Positions 316-11,419 of a stretch of DNA of 26,971 nt are shown here, one piece after another. Position numbers and translations under genes: made by a program. Numbering within the stretch: the first letter of the stretch is position 1; each line of letters opens with the position of its first letter. The DNA is from a virus. The notes under the pieces were generated by a model. The model had not been told where the DNA came from. It searched no databases and saw nothing but the letters and a program-made list of their open reading frames with translations. Location: positions 1 through 26,971 of the IMG/VR virus record IMGVR_UViG_3300030106_004401; one strand, given 5' to 3'.

Positions 316-1236
316 ATGGCCTCTATCCAAGGATGGGGCCGACAAACTTGGAACAGTGGTGCCTGGAACCAGCAAGCACCTGTATCTGTTACAGGTAATG
401 GCCTCACGTCATCTCTAGGTACTGAGACAGTTGCCACTGACCAAAATATTTCAGTAACAGGTATTGGACTTACCTCTACGGCAGGCACTGCTGTTGGAAC
501 TGGTATAGCTCAAGTTAACCCTAGTGGAGTCGCACTTACTGCATCTTTAGGTGAGGAATCACTTTCAACAGATCAAAACATATCAGTATCAGGATTAGGT
601 CTAACTTTATCTTTAGGTAATGAATCGTCAAGTGTCACGAAAACTACTGGTTGGAACCGCGATACAGACATTAATACTGGTAATTCTATTGGTTGGAGTG
701 AACAGCAGTGGGGCGCTGTAGGCGGATCATTTGCTCTTACAGGTCAAGCTTTAACTTCATCTATAGGCGATGAATCTTTAACTACTGATCAAAACATTTC
801 AGTTACTGGATTAGGCACAACATCTGCATTAGGGACTTTCTCTATATCAGGTGATGGACAGATAACTGTTGTAGCTGGTTCTGAAACAGCCATGCAGTCA
901 GCTGTTGGCACAGCAGAGGCTGATCCTGAGTTTGTTGTGTTCCCAAGTGGTAATGCTTTAACTTCAGCTTTGGGCACAGTAGAGACATCTATCTTCCTTA
1001 CAGGTGTAGGATTGACATCAAGCCTTGGTGATGAAACTCAAGAGACAATTTATACAGCTCCAAGCGTATCAGCTACCTCTAATGTAGGAACAGTTGCGGT
1101 AACTGGAAGTTCGACTTTGACAGTGACTGGTAATTCTGTTACAAGTTCACTTGGTACTCTACAAGGCACCTTCTGGTCAGAAGTAGACGACTCAAACAGC
1201 GATATTAGTTGGACAGAGGTTCACAAAGCTGCATAA
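316..1236 (+). CDS. Repeat-containing virion/tail surface protein
   Basis: This 306-residue protein starts at ATG behind AGGAGATAAAAC. It is almost wholly Ser/Thr/Gly/Val and contains a short repeating module: the core TDQNISV occurs at residues 41, 85 and 157, each preceded by a (A/G)LT(S/A)S(L/I)G type strand and followed by (T/S)GxGxT. Degenerate copies continue to about residue 282. Two tryptophan clusters are present: GWGRQTWNSGAWN at residues 6-18 and a second at 112-133. Repeating beta strands with Trp-Gly motifs are typical of phage fibre or baseplate-decorating proteins, so exposure on the virion is inferred. No enzyme motif is visible. The gene lies in a + strand run of surface proteins. 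Confidence 0.75.
   Translation: MASIQGWGRQTWNSGAWNQQAPVSVTGNGLTSSLGTETVATDQNISVTGIGLTSTAGTAVGTGIAQVNPSGVALTASLGEESLSTDQNISVSGLGLTLSLGNESSSVTKTTGWNRDTDINTGNSIGWSEQQWGAVGGSFALTGQALTSSIGDESLTTDQNISVTGLGTTSALGTFSISGDGQITVVAGSETAMQSAVGTAEADPEFVVFPSGNALTSALGTVETSIFLTGVGLTSSLGDETQETIYTAPSVSATSNVGTVAVTGSSTLTVTGNSVTSSLGTLQGTFWSEVDDSNSDISWTEVHKAA
400..834 (+). repeat. Degenerate in-frame repeat inside the surface protein gene
   Basis: Three copies of a roughly 29-residue module start near bases 400, 532 and 748, each centred on the peptide TDQNIS. Spacing differs between copies (44 and 72 residues between cores) and third-base positions have diverged. This looks like old duplication of a protein module rather than a recent DNA tandem repeat. 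Confidence 0.6.
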
Positions 1237-2869: not shown

Positions 2870-3205
2870 ATGGCAATAGATATAGAAACTTCAGTTATAG
2901 CTTTACAAAACCCTGTAAGAAAATATGCCTTTAGTCTAAAAACTGATGCTAATGGTGAATTAGAAATGGGTAGTGATGGTAAGCCTATTAAAATTTTTAA
3001 TGTATTTGAAGACGACGGCACAACTAAGAGAACTACGATTGAATGTGACGTTAAATGGACTCATAGAACTGAAGCAGTTGGAGATATATGGGAACCTTTT
3101 ATGTGTACACCTTGGGATACAGCGGCGCACGGTCAAAAACTTTGGACTGATTTAAATAATGGAGTTTATGGAGCCATTGATGAATCAGATTTAGAGGGTT
3201 GGTGA
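2870..3205 (+). CDS. Hypothetical protein, end of + strand fibre run
   Basis: This 111-residue protein starts at ATG behind AAAGGAGATAAATA. I do not recognise the family. It is acidic overall, lacks signal peptide and membrane segments, and has a Trp-rich C-terminal half (KWTHR, DIWEPF, PWDTAAHGQKLW, ending DLEGW). Unlike the fibre proteins before it, it looks like a compact globular protein, so a fibre chaperone or assembly factor is possible but speculative. The last 40 bases are also the end of the convergent oxygenase gene on the other strand, leaving no space for a separate terminator. Confidence 0.65.
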   Translation: MAIDIETSVIALQNPVRKYAFSLKTDANGELEMGSDGKPIKIFNVFEDDGTTKRTTIECDVKWTHRTEAVGDIWEPFMCTPWDTAAHGQKLWTDLNNGVYGAIDESDLEGW

Positions 3206-3822
3206 TCCTCAAAAATTGTTGTAAAATTAAAAGATAAAGATCTTCTAATTCTATCTTTGTGTTTCAATTTAAAGGGCATAACAAAATGTTGATGACTAGC
3301 TTGAAAAATATAGAAATCACCTACAGCTGGTTGAAATGATATACAATTTTCACCATCCACAGTTGTAAAAGTCAAGCAACCATTCATAGATTCTTTATTT
3401 AAATTTGTTGGAGCAACAATTTCTGGTGTTTTTAAAAATAAAACAGTTGAGTAGCCAGAGGCCTTTTTTGTTACTGGGTCTATACGATGAACGTGAGGTG
3501 GGTTAAAATCACCCTCAACCATGTCATTTATCCACGCGCCATCTATATGATAATCTTTTATTGGAGTATTTTTACTTTTAAGTAAATGTGCTGTGTTTTG
3601 TACATAATCTTGCATACAAGAATACATAGAGTAAATTATTGGCACAGAAGATAACATATTCATAATATTGGTTTCTTCTTTTACATTACCCGCTAATTTA
3701 TGACTGAAATCTTGTAGAGTTGATTTTTTTGCATCAAATATTTCATTTAATTGATTTATTTCATCTATCTGTAGATGATACTTACCTATAACTTTTCCAC
3801 TAACTGTAAAATCTGCTTGCAT
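3166..3822 (-). CDS. 2OG-Fe(II) oxygenase-like protein (HxH type), copy 1
   Basis: This 218-residue protein has the pattern of the double-stranded beta-helix 2-oxoglutarate/Fe(II) dioxygenases, closest in style to the 2OG-FeII_Oxy_5 / TIGR02466 group. Visible parts are LAGNVKEE at about 43-50, a metal-binding segment GDFNPPHVHR with H110 and H112, the strand GYSTVLFLKTP, then GDFYIFQASHQHFVMPF with distal H179, and RRSLSFNF with R194 as candidate 2OG-binding arginine. The second ligand position is His rather than Asp/Glu. ATG follows AAAGGATAAAAT. It is closely related in layout to the oxygenase at 10742-11419. It ends by overlapping the convergent + strand gene by 40 bases. The substrate is unknown; family members hydroxylate proteins, nucleobases or small molecules. 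Confidence 0.8.
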   Translation of the reverse strand: MQADFTVSGKVIGKYHLQIDEINQLNEIFDAKKSTLQDFSHKLAGNVKEETNIMNMLSSVPIIYSMYSCMQDYVQNTAHLLKSKNTPIKDYHIDGAWINDMVEGDFNPPHVHRIDPVTKKASGYSTVLFLKTPEIVAPTNLNKESMNGCLTFTTVDGENCISFQPAVGDFYIFQASHQHFVMPFKLKHKDRIRRSLSFNFTTIFEDHQPSKSDSSMAP

Positions 3823-3839: not shown

Positions 3840-4403
3840 TTAATTTATATATTCAAACCAACCTGTTAAAATATATTTATCACCTTTTAACGAAGTATTA
3901 CCTCTGTGTACGTGTGTCCATGAGGCAGGAGCAATAATTAGTCTGCCTTCTTTTGGTTGCACTCTTTTATTTTGATACAAAAATTCTGTCTCTCCTCCTT
4001 CTTCAATATTATTTAAATACATTAAGAAAAATAATGCTCTGCTAGAATTTTGTAAACTTGAATTTTCACTATGCCAAATATGATAACCCTCACTAGGAGA
4101 AGTTTTTTGTAATTTAATATTTGGATTTAAAAAAATCTTTGATCCTGATTCAAAAGCTGTTTTATATCTTTCTACATAATCTAAAAAAGCAAGGTTAATA
4201 ATATTATGGAATTCATTTAATAAATTAATGTTAAAATTTAAGAGAGTGTTTTCTTGTTCTTGTAATAAATAATAATGACTTCCGGTGATTAATTTTTCGT
4301 CTTTGTTTCTGTTTATTAATTCTAAATTTTTTAAGTGATCAAAAACTTTTTTACAAAAAACATCAGTATTATCTATATCATACACTCCTATAAAATCTGT
4401 CAT
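3840..4403 (-). CDS. 2OG-Fe(II) oxygenase, prolyl-4-hydroxylase-like
   Basis: This 187-residue protein (from ATG at 4403) resembles the P4H-like 2OG-Fe(II) oxygenases. The core reads GYHIWHSEN with H111 and E113, RALFFLMYLNNIEEGGETEF at 123-141, then RVQPKEGRLIIAPASWTHVHRG with distal H166, and GDKYILTGW with K176 at the usual 2-oxoglutarate-binding Lys. The HxE in place of HxD is conservative. The open frame could extend 13 codons to a TTG at 4442, but that stretch (MTTNLWYSCKKKN) lacks family character and contains a TTGACA promoter-like box, so I prefer the internal ATG. Its sequence is visibly more A/T-rich than the tail genes. Protein hydroxylation is the usual P4H activity; the target here is not visible. 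Confidence 0.8.
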   Translation of the reverse strand: MTDFIGVYDIDNTDVFCKKVFDHLKNLELINRNKDEKLITGSHYYLLQEQENTLLNFNINLLNEFHNIINLAFLDYVERYKTAFESGSKIFLNPNIKLQKTSPSEGYHIWHSENSSLQNSSRALFFLMYLNNIEEGGETEFLYQNKRVQPKEGRLIIAPASWTHVHRGNTSLKGDKYILTGWFEYIN

Positions 4404-4412
4404 ATTCTTTTT

Positions 4413-4464
4413 TTTACATGAATACCATAAATTTGTTGTCAAGAAAACAATTTATAAAAATACT
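4413..4464. promoter_or_regulatory. Possible back-to-back promoters with overlapping -35 boxes
   Basis: On the + strand TTGTCA (4436-4441) lies 17 bases before AATACT (4459-4464), upstream of the small gene at 4530. On the - strand TTGACA (4442-4437) lies 18 bases before TGTAAA (4418-4413), just ahead of the P4H-like gene at 4403. The two -35 boxes overlap in the 7-base TTGTCAA. The -10 boxes are weak (4 of 6 matches), and the - strand transcript would have almost no leader. Confidence 0.3.
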
Positions 4465-4937: not shown

Positions 4938-5516
4938 TTACTCTCTCCATCTTAAATTAAAACTTAAAATAATTCTATCTTGGTTTGAATTATTTTGTTG
5001 TACCTCATGTTGTAACCATGATGGAAAAAAAATCAAGTTATTCTCTTTTGCTTCCCATTGTACGCTATGAGCAAAATGTACAGATAGATCTTGGTTTTTA
5101 GGTGGATCAAGCACCTCTGATTGTGGTCTGGGTTCAATAAACACAAGATTACCGCTATTTTTAGGCACTTTAATATAATATACACCAGATAAAAAATTTA
5201 AAGGATGTGTGTGAACTGTATTTCTAGCACCTGGTGGATTTATCATACCCCATAATCCTGTCATTTCAGGGCCATATTTTCTCTCTACACTTAACGCATT
5301 AAAACATTCTTGTGCTTGAAACATAATGTCTTGTGTTATTTTTTCAAAACCTTCATGCAAATACAAATCTTCTTTGCTGTGCCACCCATTTACATTTGAT
5401 TTTGGTGATCCAACTTTATCTTGTTTTTGTAAATCATAAAGTTTTTGTTCTAAATTATAATCGTTTTGCAACTCTGTGGTGAACACAGGAGTAATAAACA
5501 TACCTTGCAATTTCAT
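4938..5516 (-). CDS. 2OG-Fe(II) oxygenase, 2OG-FeII_Oxy_5 / TIGR02466-like (HxH type)
   Basis: This 192-residue protein is the clearest member of this family in the window. The motif series is TGLWGMINPPGARNTVHTHP (87-105) with H102 and H104, LSGVYYIKVP (109-118), GNLVFIEPRP (122-131), then FFPSWLQHEV with distal H170, and RIILSFNLRW with R181. This order and the FPSWLxHxV signature match what I know of the family. The expected iron ligands are H102, the residue two later (His here rather than Asp) and H170; R181 would hold 2-oxoglutarate. ATG follows AGAAAGGAAAAAG. The substrate is unknown. Relatives are frequent in marine phages, usually near virion genes as here. Confidence 0.85.
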   Translation of the reverse strand: MKLQGMFITPVFTTELQNDYNLEQKLYDLQKQDKVGSPKSNVNGWHSKEDLYLHEGFEKITQDIMFQAQECFNALSVERKYGPEMTGLWGMINPPGARNTVHTHPLNFLSGVYYIKVPKNSGNLVFIEPRPQSEVLDPPKNQDLSVHFAHSVQWEAKENNLIFFPSWLQHEVQQNNSNQDRIILSFNLRWRE

Positions 5517-6072: not shown

Positions 6073-6751
6073 AAAAACCTCCATAAAATGGAAATAAAGA
6101 ACCAACACCTTCGCGATTTGGTTGAGATGCCATGTACATACCTTGTCCTCTGTTTCCTAGTAAGCTAGCAATACCATCCTCTAACCTATCTAATCTTTCA
6201 TTTAAACTAGAAAATTGTTTTTCAAAAGGATTTACACTGGCAACAGTCTCTGGTCCAGTAACAGTTACAGGAAGTGCTTTAGTGCCGTCTAACAAGGGTG
6301 GCGCCTGCACTCTCTCTTCATCGCCAGTTAAAACAGGTCTCCCTGCAAATAAATTTAGTGAATCATTAGGACCAGACACTTGAGCTAAAGGTTCAAATTG
6401 TTTTAGACTATTATCTGAAATCATATCTTCCTTACCTACCGATTTCATGTATGACACTAAATTGCCTATAAAGGAACCATTACCTGTAATAGGTAAACCA
6501 TTTATTTCTATTGTTCTAGAATCTTGTTGCATTTGATTTACGTTTTTAGCAAAATCAGATTGACCAAAACCATCTAATATTTCTTTAGTAACAGGGTTAG
6601 TATAAACTTCTGTTAAAGGTGGAGCGTCTTGTTTAGGAGGAAGAATAAGACCACCCGCTAAGGGATCAATTTTCGCGCCCATATTAGACATTTGCATTTC
6701 CCCTGTTAAACCACCAGCTAAAGGATTTTGATACATAGGTCCAGTAATCAT
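6065..6751 (-). CDS. Hypothetical virion-associated protein
   Basis: This 228-residue protein starts at ATG 6751, overlapping the end of the 614-residue tail gene by four bases (ATGA). The N-terminus has two near-identical phrases, NPLAGGL (9-15) and DPLAGGL (29-35). The middle is low-complexity and Pro-rich, a probable coiled-coil or helical heptad segment is at about 176-195 (FEKQFSSLNERLDRLEDGIA), and the tail is aromatic/Gly-rich (LFPFYGGFYG). There is no enzyme motif. Strict coupling to the tail gene suggests a tail or connector accessory protein. I do not recognise the family. Confidence 0.65.
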   Translation of the reverse strand: MITGPMYQNPLAGGLTGEMQMSNMGAKIDPLAGGLILPPKQDAPPLTEVYTNPVTKEILDGFGQSDFAKNVNQMQQDSRTIEINGLPITGNGSFIGNLVSYMKSVGKEDMISDNSLKQFEPLAQVSGPNDSLNLFAGRPVLTGDEERVQAPPLLDGTKALPVTVTGPETVASVNPFEKQFSSLNERLDRLEDGIASLLGNRGQGMYMASQPNREGVGSLFPFYGGFYG

Positions 6752-8592
6752 CTTCTACCGTCTGGTCTTAATTCTAATTTTTGTGAGCCTAATCTCCAAG
6801 GTGTATCATTAACTGTATTAGTTGTGTATCTAATTTTTACTGCTCTACCTCTACCTCTAACACTTACTTTTTCTGTGGTGCTAGTAATACTTGCATTCGA
6901 CGTAACATTAGAGGAGGATTGTGGGTATTGCTCTAATGTAAGTCTAGCCGTCATAGTGTTTGCTAAGTTAGTAAAATCAGGAACTAATTTATTAACAGAC
7001 ATTAATTGATCACCGTCTGCTATCTCAACAGAGCCTGTTTCTAAAAAAGCTGTGATTGCTGTGCCATCTGCTTGATTATTGCCAGACTCATGTTCGTATA
7101 TGAAAGAAGCACCGGATGTTAATCCTAAAATGGTAGAAACGTTAGCTGTGGTGCTAGCATTATATTCAGTAGCAATAGGTTTTTCATATACATAAGCACC
7201 AAGCCAAGTAGTTCTCCCTAAACTCAATGTGTACCAAGTGCCTTCTAAATAATTATATGCAACAGCCCTATCTATTTGAGATGCGTTTGCAGAGGGGTAA
7301 TACCAAATGATCTCATTGTAAGCTGTGTTCAATCCTACAGCTATATCATTTTTATTTGTATAACTAATGTCGTCAAAAACAAAATCTTGCACTGAACAAG
7401 GCATTTTTTTAACAACACCATCATATAAATAAAATGCATCATCAGACATCCAATAAGCTATGCCGTTGACTTCTATAGCTGCGTGTTGAGCTATGAGACC
7501 TGAATTTGCACCAAGCTGTCTAAGCCCAAAGGTAAAAGGCGATCCAACAAATTGAATGCCGTGTAAGGATGTATCTGTCCACACAAGTATTTGGCCGGCT
7601 GATTTAACAGCGCCAACAATTTTTGATCCATCTGATATACGTAAAGATCCTGCCTCATTGGTAGCGACTGGTGTAAAATCTGTTGCATCTTCTCTATCTG
7701 AAAATCTAAAAAATAAATCATCCTGTGAGGATTCAGTGCCTATTGTAGTCTCTGTGCCAAAAATCAACAAATGTCTTGTGTCTGTTGAAACAAGACTAAA
7801 TCTTGATGCGGTAGGAGCATTAGATAAAGCTGTTGCCCTTGTGCCTACTCCTGCAGAAGTGTCCCAAACAAAAGTACCTCCATCTAAGACAGTAGCTATT
7901 AGATCTTCACCAAAATTATCTAATGACCAGTTTCTTCCTGCAATAACAACATCAGATGCAGAGCTTGCAGTGCCCCAAGTGCCACTACTCCATGTGTCAG
8001 TGCCCCAACCTAATCCATATGTTGATGTAGCTGGTCCTACGTTTATTTGATATTTTGCATTACCTGATCCACCACCTCCGGATGTTGAACCAGATGCTGT
8101 GCTAGTATGTGTTACTGTATAATTATTTGCATCAGTTATAGAAGTTATTTCAAATTCTTGATTCATGTCCAAACCGTCTATTGATGAAAAAGAATCAAAA
8201 GTAACAAAATCACCAAGTTTTGCATTGTGTGTGGTATCTGCTACAGAAACAGTGGTTGTACCATTTGTTGTGAAAGGATTTGTTAAGGCCTGAGTTTCAC
8301 GAATTGGAGTTATGTCATATACGGCTCCTTCGTTATAAATGTATAATTTTCTGTCTGTACCCAAGGCTAAATATCGTAAACCGTCTAATCCCATCCATGA
8401 ATGCGAGTCTCTTACGACGCCGACTATGGTTCTATTAGGATTAGGTAAATTTGTCCAGCCACCCCATCTTTCTGGTTTTCCATAATGAAACCTAACAAAA
8501 TCAGAATCTATATATTTACGATCGTCACCGGCTGAATATGCTGTGTCTTGTTTATCTATTCCAGGTCTAAATTTTAAGTCTACTAGCTGCAT
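6748..8592 (-). CDS. Large tail hub / DNA-stabilisation-like protein (P22 gp10-like, tentative)
   Basis: This 614-residue protein has repeated beta-propeller-like strands: RFHYGKPERWGGWTNLP near the start, RYLALGTDRKLYIY at 73-86, and later AGQILVWTDTSLHGIQFVG and GIAYWMSDDAFYLYDG. The early FVRFxxGxPEKxGGW pattern and the WTDxSLxxMQYxG-like segment are what I associate with the phage tail stabilisation/hub proteins of the P22 gp10 kind. A Gly-Ser linker (SGSTSGGGGSGN at 168-178) and a Trp motif (GWGTDTWSSGTWG, 195-207) separate the two halves, and the C-terminus is basic (RRDGR-like). It probably forms part of the short tail below the portal. The next gene overlaps its stop by four bases, so both are likely co-translated. 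Confidence 0.7.
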   Translation of the reverse strand: MQLVDLKFRPGIDKQDTAYSAGDDRKYIDSDFVRFHYGKPERWGGWTNLPNPNRTIVGVVRDSHSWMGLDGLRYLALGTDRKLYIYNEGAVYDITPIRETQALTNPFTTNGTTTVSVADTTHNAKLGDFVTFDSFSSIDGLDMNQEFEITSITDANNYTVTHTSTASGSTSGGGGSGNAKYQINVGPATSTYGLGWGTDTWSSGTWGTASSASDVVIAGRNWSLDNFGEDLIATVLDGGTFVWDTSAGVGTRATALSNAPTASRFSLVSTDTRHLLIFGTETTIGTESSQDDLFFRFSDREDATDFTPVATNEAGSLRISDGSKIVGAVKSAGQILVWTDTSLHGIQFVGSPFTFGLRQLGANSGLIAQHAAIEVNGIAYWMSDDAFYLYDGVVKKMPCSVQDFVFDDISYTNKNDIAVGLNTAYNEIIWYYPSANASQIDRAVAYNYLEGTWYTLSLGRTTWLGAYVYEKPIATEYNASTTANVSTILGLTSGASFIYEHESGNNQADGTAITAFLETGSVEIADGDQLMSVNKLVPDFTNLANTMTARLTLEQYPQSSSNVTSNASITSTTEKVSVRGRGRAVKIRYTTNTVNDTPWRLGSQKLELRPDGRR

Positions 8593-9212
8593 TTGACCCA
8601 GTATTGTATACTAAATCTTTGTTGAGTAAAAGATACATCTTTTCCTGATTTTGATAAAATAGGTGTAATGCAATGATTAATATAACTAGGAAAAACTACC
8701 ATAAGATTATTCCTACTTGGAATCTCTACAATTTTACCCTCGTCCATAAATAACATATCTCCACCTTCTAGCTCGTCTCCTTCATTAATTATTAAATTAA
8801 AGGTAAAAAATTCAGTGTCACAATGCCAATCATAAAAGCCCCCATTGTTATAACAGACAACATGTATTTTTGCTTGTAGGTCTTTTTTTAAAAATTTAAA
8901 AACATTATCTCTGCCTGAATTTTGCAGGAAAGAAAAGAACCCTTGGTTATAAAATCTAGTGTTCAAACTTAGTATGTTCTCATTATTTTGAGGGGTCTCA
9001 CCAAAATTAATCCAATAATCAAAACCCCCGCATGATTTATTAAAAGCAGAATATTTTTCTTTTTGTTTTGTTAAGGTGTTAACCCCATACCATTCAGGCA
9101 TTTTAAATGCATTAATGTTTTTAATTAAATCATTTTGCACGTTTTCAAAAATAACAGGTGGTAAAAAATCTTTACAAATAATTATATTTTCCGAAACGTA
9201 TTCATATCTCAT
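8583..9212 (-). CDS. 2OG-Fe(II) oxygenase (HxD type)
   Basis: This 209-residue protein carries the classic 2OG-Fe(II) oxygenase core: GGFYDWHCDTEF with H130 and D132, FNLIINEGDELEGGDMLF (138-155), NNLMVVFPSYINHCITPI with distal H180, and QQRFSIQYWV with R199 as 2-oxoglutarate-binding arginine. The complete H-x-D...H...R set makes activity plausible. The N-terminal half has a FLPPVIFENV start typical of P4H-like relatives and a Cys/Gly-rich segment (KSCGGFDYW). It starts at ATG 9212, overlapping the glycosyltransferase stop by four bases (ATGA), and its end overlaps the tail gene start by ten bases. It is therefore in the same translational chain as the glycosyltransferase; shared substrate is an inference. 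Confidence 0.85.
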   Translation of the reverse strand: MRYEYVSENIIICKDFLPPVIFENVQNDLIKNINAFKMPEWYGVNTLTKQKEKYSAFNKSCGGFDYWINFGETPQNNENILSLNTRFYNQGFFSFLQNSGRDNVFKFLKKDLQAKIHVVCYNNGGFYDWHCDTEFFTFNLIINEGDELEGGDMLFMDEGKIVEIPSRNNLMVVFPSYINHCITPILSKSGKDVSFTQQRFSIQYWVKCS

Positions 9213-9988
9213 TTTTCGACTCCTTTAAACTGTGTACCAACATTACCTCTAAAAGCATAGTTGCCATAATGTGTCATGCCAGATAAAACATCAGCATAAA
9301 TTTTACCGCCCATGTTTTGCCATAAACGACAAAAAGCGTAATCCTCTGATAGATATCTTTTTGTTTGTGGTTCTATCATGGTATCAAAAAAAGCAAAATT
9401 CCAATCTGATGTTTTGTGATAATTAAATTCTGTTTCGTGCGATTGATTTATATGTTGATCAGGTTTAAATTGTAAATTTGGATAAACTTTAGCCATTCTT
9501 TTAAAAACTTCTTTTTTTATTAACATGAAACCTGTTGGGCCATCTAAGACCTCAATAAATCCATTTTCTAATAAAATTTTATCAGGGTCTTTTACATTTA
9601 AATTATATTGTAATGATGCTGCTAAAAGTTCATCTTCGGATATATCAGGATTTTCTTTCAATCTTTTCTTAACTTTCATCCAATCAATAGTTTTTCTTGG
9701 ATATATGCCAGTGACCACTTCTTTGTCATACTCTAACATTCTTACTACAGCATCCGGATTAAAAGCTAAATCGGCATCTATGAATAATAAATGCGTGTAG
9801 TTTCCATCCATGAATAATTGAACTAATGTATTACGAGCTCTAGTAATTAAAGACTCATTACCTATTGTTGCAAATTGTAATTCTATTTTATTTGCGGCTG
9901 CTAAAGATACTAATTGCATGCAGCTTTTAAAATATTCTGTGGTAATAAGACCGCCGTAACAAGGAGTTCCAACAAATACTTTATGCAT
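9209..9988 (-). CDS. GT-A type glycosyltransferase-like protein
   Basis: This 259-residue protein begins MHKVFVGTPCYGGLITTEYF, continues with NESLITRARNTLV (44-56), then THLLFIDADLAF with the D71-x-D73 metal/nucleotide-sugar motif of GT-A enzymes. Later it has FIEVLDGPTGFMLIKKEVF (144-162) and RYLSEDYAFCRLW (211-223), where E215/D216 occupy the usual catalytic-base region, plus H240 near the C-terminus. There is no membrane segment, so it is likely cytosolic. ATG 9988 is preferred over a start 36 codons upstream because it gives an eight-base overlap (ATGCATAA) with the preceding oxygenase and begins at the family's normal N-terminus. Donor and acceptor are unknown; candidates are virion proteins, host surface glycans or modified bases. 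Confidence 0.8.
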   Translation of the reverse strand: MHKVFVGTPCYGGLITTEYFKSCMQLVSLAAANKIELQFATIGNESLITRARNTLVQLFMDGNYTHLLFIDADLAFNPDAVVRMLEYDKEVVTGIYPRKTIDWMKVKKRLKENPDISEDELLAASLQYNLNVKDPDKILLENGFIEVLDGPTGFMLIKKEVFKRMAKVYPNLQFKPDQHINQSHETEFNYHKTSDWNFAFFDTMIEPQTKRYLSEDYAFCRLWQNMGGKIYADVLSGMTHYGNYAFRGNVGTQFKGVEK

Positions 9989-10490
9989 CTTTATAAAAAA
10001 TATTAAGTGTGTATCTGTCAGTGCTTTCGCCAAATGATTGTAAATCAGAATGCATAATTTTGCTACCATTAAAAAATAAAGCTCTATTTTCAACAAATCC
10101 TATGTGTGAAGATAATTGATTATTATTAGCAAAGCCCGTGCCATTATTAAATAATGGTTCACCTTTTACAAACAGTAAAAAATTAGCAACATTACCCTTG
10201 TAGGTGTCTATGTGAAACATTGGCTCTTTGTTATTTTTTCTTACGTGAGCGCTTACAGATATTGGCTCTAAATTTCTATTAGGAAAAAAATAATTTTTAA
10301 TTAATTTTAATAAAGGATCTGTGTGAAAACTTTTGGGAAATGTATGCCTTTTGCCATATGTGCGTCCGTGAGGATCATTAACTTCGGAATATTTTAAATT
10401 TATAAAAGTTTCTTGTAAAGATTCCAATGTTTCTATTGATAAAAAATTATCAACGTACATTACAAATTCAGTATTGCTATTGTGTTGCAT
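9981..10490 (-). CDS. 2OG-Fe(II) oxygenase-like protein (small, HxD type)
   Basis: This 169-residue protein reads VDNFLSIETLESLQ at the start, then EPMFHIDTYKGN with H93 and D95, NVANFLLFVKGEP (100-112), ENRALFFNGSKIMHSD with distal H147, and DRYTLNIFY with R159. The H-x-D...H...R order and strand spacing match small 2OG-Fe(II) oxygenases of phages. It is shorter than most, with a minimal N-terminal helix region. ATG 10490 overlaps the upstream gene by 14 bases, and its stop overlaps the glycosyltransferase start by eight, which makes these two genes the most closely coupled enzyme pair in the block. Substrate unknown. Confidence 0.8.
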   Translation of the reverse strand: MQHNSNTEFVMYVDNFLSIETLESLQETFINLKYSEVNDPHGRTYGKRHTFPKSFHTDPLLKLIKNYFFPNRNLEPISVSAHVRKNNKEPMFHIDTYKGNVANFLLFVKGEPLFNNGTGFANNNQLSSHIGFVENRALFFNGSKIMHSDLQSFGESTDRYTLNIFYKDA

Positions 10491-10758
10491 ACTCTACAGT
10501 TAAATATTCTATTTTTCTAACCCAGCCACGAGGTATAGATATAGCACCTCCACCATGATTATCATCTTTGTCTAAACACCATGATCTCATAATAACTATT
10601 TTATCATCATTATTAACAACCATATATCCAACCTCTTGACATACTGCTAGTGGAGCAGAAACAATATCTTTTATGTGCAACCAACCTGTTTCTGTATCTT
10701 TAGCATCATGCCACGTAATTCTTACCATAGGAAAAGGTGTATTAGATTTGTTGCTCAT
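10477..10758 (-). CDS. Hypothetical small conserved-type phage protein
   Basis: This 93-residue protein starts at ATG 10758 behind AAGATAAGG. The sequence MVRITWHDAKDTETGWLHIKDI, then APLAVCQEVGYMVVNNDDKIVIMRSW and IPRGWVRKIEYL, suggests a compact SH3-like beta barrel. I recall similar short proteins in cyanophages and other marine phages but no assigned function. It overlaps the preceding oxygenase by 17 bases and the following one by 14, so it belongs to the oxygenase translational unit and could be an accessory or structural partner. No catalytic motif is visible. Confidence 0.7.
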   Translation of the reverse strand: MSNKSNTPFPMVRITWHDAKDTETGWLHIKDIVSAPLAVCQEVGYMVVNNDDKIVIMRSWCLDKDDNHGGGAISIPRGWVRKIEYLTVEYATQ

Positions 10759-11419
10759 CCTTATCTTTTTTTCTTTTCACTTGTACATTAAAAGAAACAG
10801 ATCTTCTTTCTTCGTCTTGTGTCCTGAATGGATAAACCATATGAGATAGCCAAGAAGGAAAAAGATAGATGTCTCCTACTCTAGGTGTTGCTTGAAATGT
10901 ATGCCCATTAAAAGTTGCAGCTTGTCCACACTGCCATTGAATATCACCTACACAAGGAAAATGATCTTCATTTTCATATTCTTTTTTTAATCCTGGAGGT
11001 ATTCTTAAATATATTACACCAGACAAATCACCATCATGAACATGTGAAGGATTAAAATCGCCCGCCCACTGTGATACAACCCACATACTTGTGATAAGTA
11101 TTCTATCTACTTTATCCGGAGATATTGTATTGACCATAGGAGGTTGCTCTAAATATTTATGTATTATCATTTGTAAAGAATTACTCATGGCAGCAAACTC
11201 AGTAGATATCATCCACGCTGGAGGATATCTTACTTCTTGTTTTACATTACCTGCAAGATGCATTGAATGATCCCAATCCTTAGACATTTTTTCACTTTCC
11301 ATAATCTCAGTTGCTTTATCATCTAACAATTTAATTAAAGATTCAGGTAATGAACCTTTGAAGATTGTGGGACCAAACGGCCTAAAGGCCTGAAATTCGT
11401 GCTGTAACTTCTCTGCCAT
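10742..11419 (-). CDS. 2OG-Fe(II) oxygenase-like protein (HxH type), copy 2
   Basis: This 225-residue protein shows the TIGR02466-like series: MHLAGNVKQEV (53-63), GDFNPSHVHDGDLSGVIYLR (120-139) with H126 and H128, then RVGDIYLFPSWLSHMVYPF with distal H193, and ERRSVSFNVQV with R206 as likely 2-oxoglutarate ligand. LAGNVK, GDFNP(P/S)HVH and RRS(L/V)SFN are shared with the protein at 3166-3822, so the two are probable paralogs. The acid that normally follows the first His is replaced by His, with an Asp (D129) directly after. The C-terminus is a charged tail (KRKKDKDEQQI). ATG follows GAAAAGGAATAAAA. It is the first gene of the - strand block, read away from the divergent promoter region at about 11450. 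Confidence 0.85.
   Translation of the reverse strand: MAEKLQHEFQAFRPFGPTIFKGSLPESLIKLLDDKATEIMESEKMSKDWDHSMHLAGNVKQEVRYPPAWMISTEFAAMSNSLQMIIHKYLEQPPMVNTISPDKVDRILITSMWVVSQWAGDFNPSHVHDGDLSGVIYLRIPPGLKKEYENEDHFPCVGDIQWQCGQAATFNGHTFQATPRVGDIYLFPSWLSHMVYPFRTQDEERRSVSFNVQVKRKKDKDEQQI

What the first reader, a model, noticed from the sequence alone, without database searches (positions are those of the whole stretch)
8583..10490. Glycosyltransferase translationally locked between two HxD oxygenases
The small oxygenase (9981-10490) overlaps the GT-A gene (9209-9988) by eight bases, which overlaps the next oxygenase (8583-9212) by four, which overlaps the tail gene by ten. Hydroxylation followed by sugar transfer to the new hydroxyl is a known logic for hydroxylysine and for modified DNA bases. 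The chain suggests a hydroxylate-then-glycosylate module, perhaps acting on the tail protein encoded next in the chain. No base-modifying methylase or hydroxymethylase is visible here, which weakly favours a protein or glycan target.
Basis: inference. Interest (0 to 1): 0.7.

Follow-up and report, generated by a model that had tools for sequence, protein, structure and literature searches.

The report
Phage sugar-transferase with swappable oxygenase neighbours
A marine phage carries a sugar-transferring enzyme fixed beside a tail gene, with protein-hydroxylase-like genes plugged in on either side; relatives show that these neighbours are swapped or missing, so the fixed 'hydroxylate, then add sugar' pair that was proposed is possible but not shown.

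Summary
In detail: the genes, strands and overlaps (8, 4 and 10 bases) are as stated, and all three enzymes keep their catalytic residues. The overlaps alone mean little, since 17 of 25 same-strand neighbours in this window overlap.

For it: oxyU folds like bacterial P4H/PHD2 prolyl hydroxylases, oxyD is PKHD/P4H-like, and the glycosyltransferase (GT) resembles STIV A197, then LH3 and COLGALT1. But the LH3 match is to its non-catalytic accessory domain. Against it: in 102 close relatives the GT is constant while its neighbours turn over. Only 24 of 99 have oxygenases on both sides and 12 have none. GTs 96-99% identical sit beside different enzymes. Five complete phages with a distant GT homologue (30-40% identity) have no detected 2OG oxygenase.

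New here: a clean two-state docking site after the GT. If the tail gene follows, the GT ends QFLPQ with no overlap (58/58). If any of several oxygenase families follows, the GT usually ends FKG and overlaps it by ATGA/GTGA (43/44), usually with the ribosome site inside the GT codons.

Best reading: an interchangeable protein-tailoring island beside a tail gene, not an obligate pair. Target unproven.

The parts
9209..9988 (-). GT-A glycosyltransferase, 259 aa, phrog_1574; DxD at D71/D73, E215-D216; the constant gene of the island
   Evidence: PHROG E 7e-41; invariant catalytic residues in 48 homologues; AlphaFold pLDDT 90.3; best structural match STIV A197 Z 19.0
9981..10490 (-). oxyU: 2OG-Fe(II) oxygenase, 169 aa, P4H/PHD-like; HxD...H...R intact; upstream slot
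   Evidence: no Pfam match; fold closest to P. putida P4H Z 15.9 and PHD2 15.8; OGFOD1 by sequence E 0.0017
8583..9212 (-). oxyD: 2OG-Fe(II) oxygenase, 209 aa, PKHD/P4H-like; HxD...H...R intact; downstream slot
   Evidence: PF13640 E 1.4e-8; PKHD hydroxylase 3dkq E 1e-11; invariant triad
9209..9226 (-). GT-oxyD junction: AAAGGAG (SD-like) inside the last GT codons, then ATGA stop/start overlap; the docking site
   Evidence: sequence; two-state pattern in 102 loci
6748..8592 (-). tail/head-completion 'stabilization' protein (phrog_3287); conserved downstream anchor of the GT
   Evidence: PHROG E 7e-78; immediately after the GT in 58 of 102 close loci
10477..10758 (-). 93-aa protein of unknown function (phrog_25889), abutting an oxygenase in all 75 testable loci
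10742..11419 (-). third 2OG oxygenase of the same chain (PF13759 / TIGR02466-like)
   Evidence: PF13759 E 9e-20; TIGR02466 62.1 bits, cut-off 62.5
4938..5516 (-). 2OG oxygenase (PF13759) of the same minus-strand block
   Evidence: E 1.3e-24
3840..4424 (-). 2OG oxygenase (PF13640) of the same block
   Evidence: E 1.5e-10
3166..3822 (-). 2OG oxygenase (PF13759) of the same block
   Evidence: E 2.8e-8

Best explanation
This is a modular tailoring island in a marine podovirus distantly related to the HTVC023P-type pelagiphages. One GT-A glycosyltransferase is kept in place beside a tail-completion gene. Slots on both sides of it take interchangeable cassettes, mostly small protein-type 2OG-Fe(II) hydroxylases (also a second putative GT, a cupin/JmjC protein, a halogenase or a carbamoyltransferase). 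Shown: the gene layout, intact catalytic residues, folds, cassette turnover, and the two-state docking junction with ATGA overlap. Inferred: the genes are translated together; the oxygenases hydroxylate protein side chains (Pro or similar); the GT adds a sugar to a protein, most likely a virion or tail protein made from the same region; and the GT does not depend on any one neighbouring oxygenase to make its acceptor. Swapping oxygenases would then vary the chemistry around a constant sugar-adding step, for example on the receptor-binding surface.
For: The GT is constant and its neighbours variable: 102 close loci, upstream neighbour oxyU 39, Oxy5-type 28, GT-B-like 14, 93-aa gene 8, cupin 5; downstream tail gene 58, oxygenase of several families 44. 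Family changes on the GT tree: 31 upstream, 20 downstream, with the downstream slot filled or emptied 15 times. GTs 96-99% identical with different neighbours. Two-state GT C-terminus: FLP ending and no overlap 58/58 before the tail gene; ATGA/GTGA overlap 43/44 before oxygenases, FK ending in 42 of these 44. GT among tail/virion genes in other phages: L113-L120 next to a phrog_2941-type virion protein and the fibre homologues; T4-like contigs between tail tube phrog_45 and UvsY phrog_231. Protein-hydroxylase-like oxygenases. Closest fold is STIV A197, an essential viral GT thought to glycosylate the capsid protein (PMC10551542).
Against: No substrate, sugar donor or modified protein is known. 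Some GT relatives lie in replication modules (Cr30, phiM12, OspM_OC, DLP6) and many are single genes in alphaproteobacterial genomes, so the virion link is not general. The loci are related and include near-copies, and most branches of the GT tree are weak: starred branches force only 3 changes of the downstream slot.
Confidence: 0.5

Rival explanations
1. Obligate hydroxylate-then-glycosylate pair: oxyU or oxyD makes a hydroxyl (hydroxyproline or hydroxylysine) on a tail protein and the GT adds a sugar to it, like the Skp1 or collagen pathways.
For: P4H/PHD-like oxygenases; GT fold near LH3 and COLGALT1; ATGA overlap where an oxygenase follows; at least one oxygenase touches the GT in 87 of 99 close loci.
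Against: Neighbour families swap under near-identical GTs; 12 of 99 have none abutting; five complete phages with a distant GT homologue have no oxygenase detected; the LH3 match is to a non-catalytic domain; no collagen-like protein.
Confidence: 0.17
2. The GT changes a host surface glycan (for example to block superinfection), and the oxygenases are unrelated passengers.
For: Pelagimyophage GTs have been read this way (PMC7029224); GT homologues stand alone in bacterial genomes, Pelagibacteraceae included.
Against: No LPS-type enzyme stands out among structural matches; in this lineage the GT is fixed beside the tail gene.
Confidence: 0.18
3. DNA base modification: an oxygenase hydroxylates a methylated base and the GT glycosylates it.
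For: GT relatives next to clamp/gp46/SSB genes in other phages; a C5 DNA methylase in two of ten related records.
Against: No thymidylate synthase/dCMP hydroxymethylase family member in ten records, controls positive; no methylase was seen in the window; the oxygenases are P4H/PKHD-like. The TET/JBP search gave nothing, but its control was also silent, so it is uninformative.
Confidence: 0.07
4. No joint pathway: a hypervariable spot that collects AT-rich cassette genes, each with its own target.
For: High turnover; GC 29-31% for the three genes against 35% for the window and 38% for the tail gene; a mild excess only over shuffled order.
Against: The overlap junction recurs with several oxygenase families; the same enzyme classes recur rather than random genes.
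Confidence: 0.08

Closest known systems
STIV A197 (PDB 2c0n), GT-A glycosyltransferase of an archaeal virus
   Same: Closest fold (Z 19.0, rmsd 2.2, 164 residues) and the only significant sequence-level PDB match (E 3.8e-4); small single-domain viral GT-A
   Different: 20% identity, unrelated virus, no oxygenase partner described in the passage read; A197 is essential (PMC10551542), untested here
Collagen hydroxylysine GTs: LH3/PLOD3, COLGALT1, Mimivirus R699
   Same: Same hydroxylase-plus-GT logic; COLGALT1 is the top Foldseek hit; LH3 Z 17.3, R699 15.7, COLGALT1 15.4
   Different: LH3 residues 295-536 and R699 252-455 aligned are the accessory domains, not the catalytic GT; 10-15% identity; no collagen substrate found
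Anp1/Mnn9 (GT62)
   Same: Weak Pfam match E 0.009 and Mnn9 Z 15.7
   Different: Below Pfam's cut-off (15.9 of 28.8 bits); yeast mannan enzyme
Skp1 hydroxyproline glycosylation (PhyA P4H plus GT) in Dictyostelium and Toxoplasma
   Same: Cytoplasmic P4H followed by sugar transfer (PMC3515798 and PMC11570480, abstracts); the oxygenases here are P4H-like
   Different: Eukaryotic; oxygenase and GT act strictly in sequence there, separable here; not compared by sequence
HTVC023P-type pelagiphages with several 2OG oxygenases and GTs (Wittmers et al. 2022, PMC9599517)
   Same: Related phages: polA 46-52% and tail gene 38-43% identical; colocated 2OG oxygenases and GTs already reported
   Different: In HTVC023P/027P the GT follows a GT-B gene with no abutting oxygenase; docking junction not described in the passages read

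Membership tests
GT-A glycosyltransferases | Rossmann-like GT-A fold | tested here: met
   Model pLDDT 90.3; A197 Z 19.0 and many GT-A enzymes at Z 12-17
GT-A glycosyltransferases | DxD metal/donor motif | tested here: met
   D71 and D73 invariant in 48 homologues; E215-D216 invariant too
GT-A glycosyltransferases | sugar transfer activity | not testable with these tools
   needs an enzyme assay
Collagen hydroxylysine GTs (LH3/COLGALT) | homology to the catalytic GT domain | tested here: inconclusive
   best alignments are to accessory domains of LH3 and R699 and to COLGALT1 51-315, 10-15% identity; no sequence match in the PDB profile search
Collagen hydroxylysine GTs (LH3/COLGALT) | collagen-type substrate in the same genome | tested here: not met
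   no PF01391 match in the window and nine related records, controls positive; records may be fragments
2OG-Fe(II) oxygenases (oxyU, oxyD) | HxD...H iron triad and 2OG-binding Arg | tested here: met
   invariant in 40 and 23 sequences
2OG-Fe(II) oxygenases (oxyU, oxyD) | double-stranded beta-helix fold | tested here: met
   oxyU model; oxyD by Pfam PF13640 and PKHD profile match, not modelled
Prolyl hydroxylases (P4H/PHD) | hydroxylates a prolyl residue of a protein | not testable with these tools
   fold and profile similarity only
Fixed hydroxylate-then-glycosylate operon | conserved gene order oxygenase-GT-oxygenase | tested here: not met
   oxygenases on both sides in 24 of 99 close loci; neither in 12
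Fixed hydroxylate-then-glycosylate operon | GT never without an oxygenase in the genome | tested here: not met
   Cr30, phiM12, OspM_OC, MW202825, MW202753 complete genomes without PF13640, PF13759 or oxyU-profile match; distant relatives, other 2OG families not searched
Phage DNA hypermodification cluster | thymidylate synthase/dCMP hydroxymethylase homologue | tested here: not met
   0 of 10 records, controls positive; records may be fragments
Phage DNA hypermodification cluster | TET/JBP dioxygenase | tested here: inconclusive
   0 of 10, but no control genome rang

The most novel reading that the evidence does not exclude
A phage protein-glycosylation system with a plug-in slot: a constant glycosyltransferase whose last codons form a ribosome-binding and stop/start docking junction, into which different protein hydroxylases are exchanged, so that the phage changes the hydroxylation and glycosylation chemistry of its tail proteins as fast as it changes tail fibres.
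Probability: 0.22. Interest if true: 0.8.

Novelty: new variant of a known kind. Interest (0 to 1): 0.48.

Why it matters
Many marine phages carry rows of 2OG oxygenases and glycosyltransferases, and their targets are generally unknown. The constant GT, its tie to a tail gene, the swappable P4H-like partners and the two-state junction turn a vague 'auxiliary metabolic gene' label into a testable claim about protein modification in phage particles. Cultured relatives (HTVC023P, HTVC027P) with a homologous GT exist, so virion mass spectrometry could settle it.

Tried and rejected
Overlaps as evidence of a special lock: rejected, 17 of 25 same-strand pairs overlap. Adjacency as strong evidence: weakened by shuffling. 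Foldseek's top ranks (COLGALT1, LH3) as proof of a hydroxylysine GT: rejected after the second alignment put A197 first and LH3's non-catalytic domain second. PHROG labels 'DNA endonuclease V' and 'ferrochelatase' for the oxygenases: not believed. oxyU and oxyD as one family: profile comparison inconclusive (probability 3.7%). No similar phage DNA in the annotated collection; no oxyU match and one partial oxyD match there. GT-B-like 285-aa neighbour: no PDB or Pfam match, so its name is only a guess from the sequence. DLP6 restriction digests as a hint of modified DNA: the passages found do not give the result.
Full report
WHAT WAS CHECKED. The window is one IMG/VR virus record of 26,971 bases, a marine podovirus distantly related to the HTVC023P-type pelagiphages: DNA polymerase 46-52% identical to 023Pt_psg01, DSL-LC04, HTVC023P and HTVC027P; no similar DNA among annotated phages. 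It continues upstream with a 93-aa gene and a further oxygenase. Six 2OG oxygenases lie in this 13-gene block.

ENZYMES. oxyD matches PF13640, PKHD-type hydroxylases (E 1e-11) and, more weakly, P4H. oxyU has no Pfam match, but its model (pLDDT 91.8) aligns best with P. putida P4H and PHD2 (Z 15.9 and 15.8), and its profile with OGFOD1 (E 0.0017). Both keep HxD...H...R. The GT belongs to phrog_1574, 'unknown function', with DxD and ED invariant in 48 homologues. Its model (pLDDT 90.3) aligns best with STIV A197 (Z 19.0, rmsd 2.2 over 164 residues), then LH3 (17.3), Mnn9 and Mimivirus R699 (15.7) and COLGALT1 (15.4); the next row of another kind is 13.8. The LH3 and R699 stretches aligned are the accessory domains, which in LH3 are reported as non-catalytic and as the part most like ordinary glycosyltransferases (PMC6082870; PMC11838735). 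So the likeness to hydroxylysine enzymes is real at fold level but does not show their specificity.

NEIGHBOURHOODS. One hundred and one contigs with close GTs (at least about 64% identical over the aligned part), plus the window, were read. Of 99 with both sides visible, an oxygenase lies upstream only in 44, on both sides in 24, downstream only in 19, on neither side in 12 (L030, L031, L046, L077, L092, L095, L103, L105, L106, L107, L109, L110; some of these have a cupin or an unclassified gene next to the GT). L103 and L105 have simply the 93-aa gene, GT, tail gene. The other occupants include a 285-aa putative GT-B, a cupin/JmjC protein, and, one or more genes away, a tryptophan halogenase and a carbamoyltransferase. 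GTs 96-99% identical have different neighbours. On the GT tree the downstream slot changes between filled and empty 15 times, the downstream family 20 times and the upstream family 31 times; most branches are weak and starred ones force only three slot changes.

THE JUNCTION. When the tail gene follows directly, the GT ends in QFLPQNNK or similar, with no overlap (58 of 58). When an oxygenase of any family follows, 43 of 44 junctions are ATGA or GTGA overlaps, 42 of 44 GTs end in an FK-type tail, and in 35 the last codons hold an SD-like stretch (such as TTTAAAGGAG). The shared junction with non-homologous oxygenases marks it as a docking and exchange point. Whether it couples translation was not tested.

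GT WITHOUT OXYGENASE. Farther relatives (38-51%): 34 of 58 loci show no oxygenase by these profiles. L113-L120 have the GT among virion genes just before the fibre homologues, although the L113 phage has oxygenases elsewhere. T4-like contigs have it between tail tube and UvsY; Cr30, phiM12, DLP6 and OspM_OC in the replication module. Cr30, phiM12, OspM_OC, MW202825 and MW202753, all complete, have no match to PF13640, PF13759 or the oxyU profile. DLP6 and cyanophage ACG-2014f have oxygenases elsewhere. Seventy-nine of 80 bacterial-collection loci show none near the GT with these phage-derived profiles, a test of limited sensitivity; the exception, L171, is a contig of this phage lineage.

TARGET. 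Against collagen: no PF01391 in ten records. Against DNA: no thymidylate synthase family member; a C5 methylase in two of ten records keeps the route open; the TET/JBP search is uninformative. For protein: prolyl-hydroxylase-like oxygenases, GT beside virion genes, A197 as closest fold, thought to glycosylate a capsid protein (PMC10551542). All of this is indirect.

PRIOR KNOWLEDGE. Wittmers et al. 2022 (PMC9599517) reported eight non-orthologous 2OG oxygenases and three GTs in HTVC023P-type phages, oxygenases often colocated. Pelagimyophage GTs have been read as LPS-modifying (PMC7029224). The docking junction and the fold assignment of this GT family were not seen in the passages read; supplementary files were not read.

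LIMITS. Genes were called mechanically; the census keeps the closest relatives and contains near-copies; contigs are fragments; oxygenase detection rests on profiles made here plus Pfam; chance estimates assume free gene order within a block.

Noticed in passing
L083:1286-1906 (HTVC023P gp67) and L142:4370-4978: Proteins labelled 'ferrochelatase' (phrog_2954/3531) have no Pfam ferrochelatase match (gp67) and show an invariant HxD...H pattern as in 2OG oxygenases; the published oxygenase-ferrochelatase partnership in these phages may be a labelling artefact. A PDB profile search gave no support either way.
   Followed up: partly
window 9981-10490 and 8583-9212: phrog_274 'DNA endonuclease V' is a misleading label: it matches these 2OG oxygenases.
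   Followed up: partly
L050-L053, upstream of the GT: A tryptophan-halogenase-family gene (PF04820, E 2e-76) sits in the same cassette region.
   Followed up: no
L056:2990-3958 and L171: A NodU-type carbamoyltransferase gene (PF02543) in the cassette region near the GT.
   Followed up: no
window 10477-10758: A 93-aa protein (phrog_25889) abuts an oxygenase in all 75 loci where both sides are visible; a possible oxygenase partner.
   Followed up: partly
L171 (NZMJ01000082.1): A contig filed as a Maricaulis MAG carries this phage island (GT 83% identical, oxygenases, 93-aa gene): phage sequence binned into a bacterial genome, or a host hint.
   Followed up: no
L190 and L191 (Pelagibacteraceae): A homologous GT (about 40%) lies in host genomes, next to a gene that reads as hisF.
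   Followed up: no
records of L038 (23661-24527) and L100 (47-787): C5 cytosine DNA methylase (PF00145) in two GT-bearing phage records.
   Followed up: no
window 316-1236: Predicted fibre-like protein made of an imperfect repeat (VTGxGLTSxLGxE...), seen by eye.
   Followed up: no
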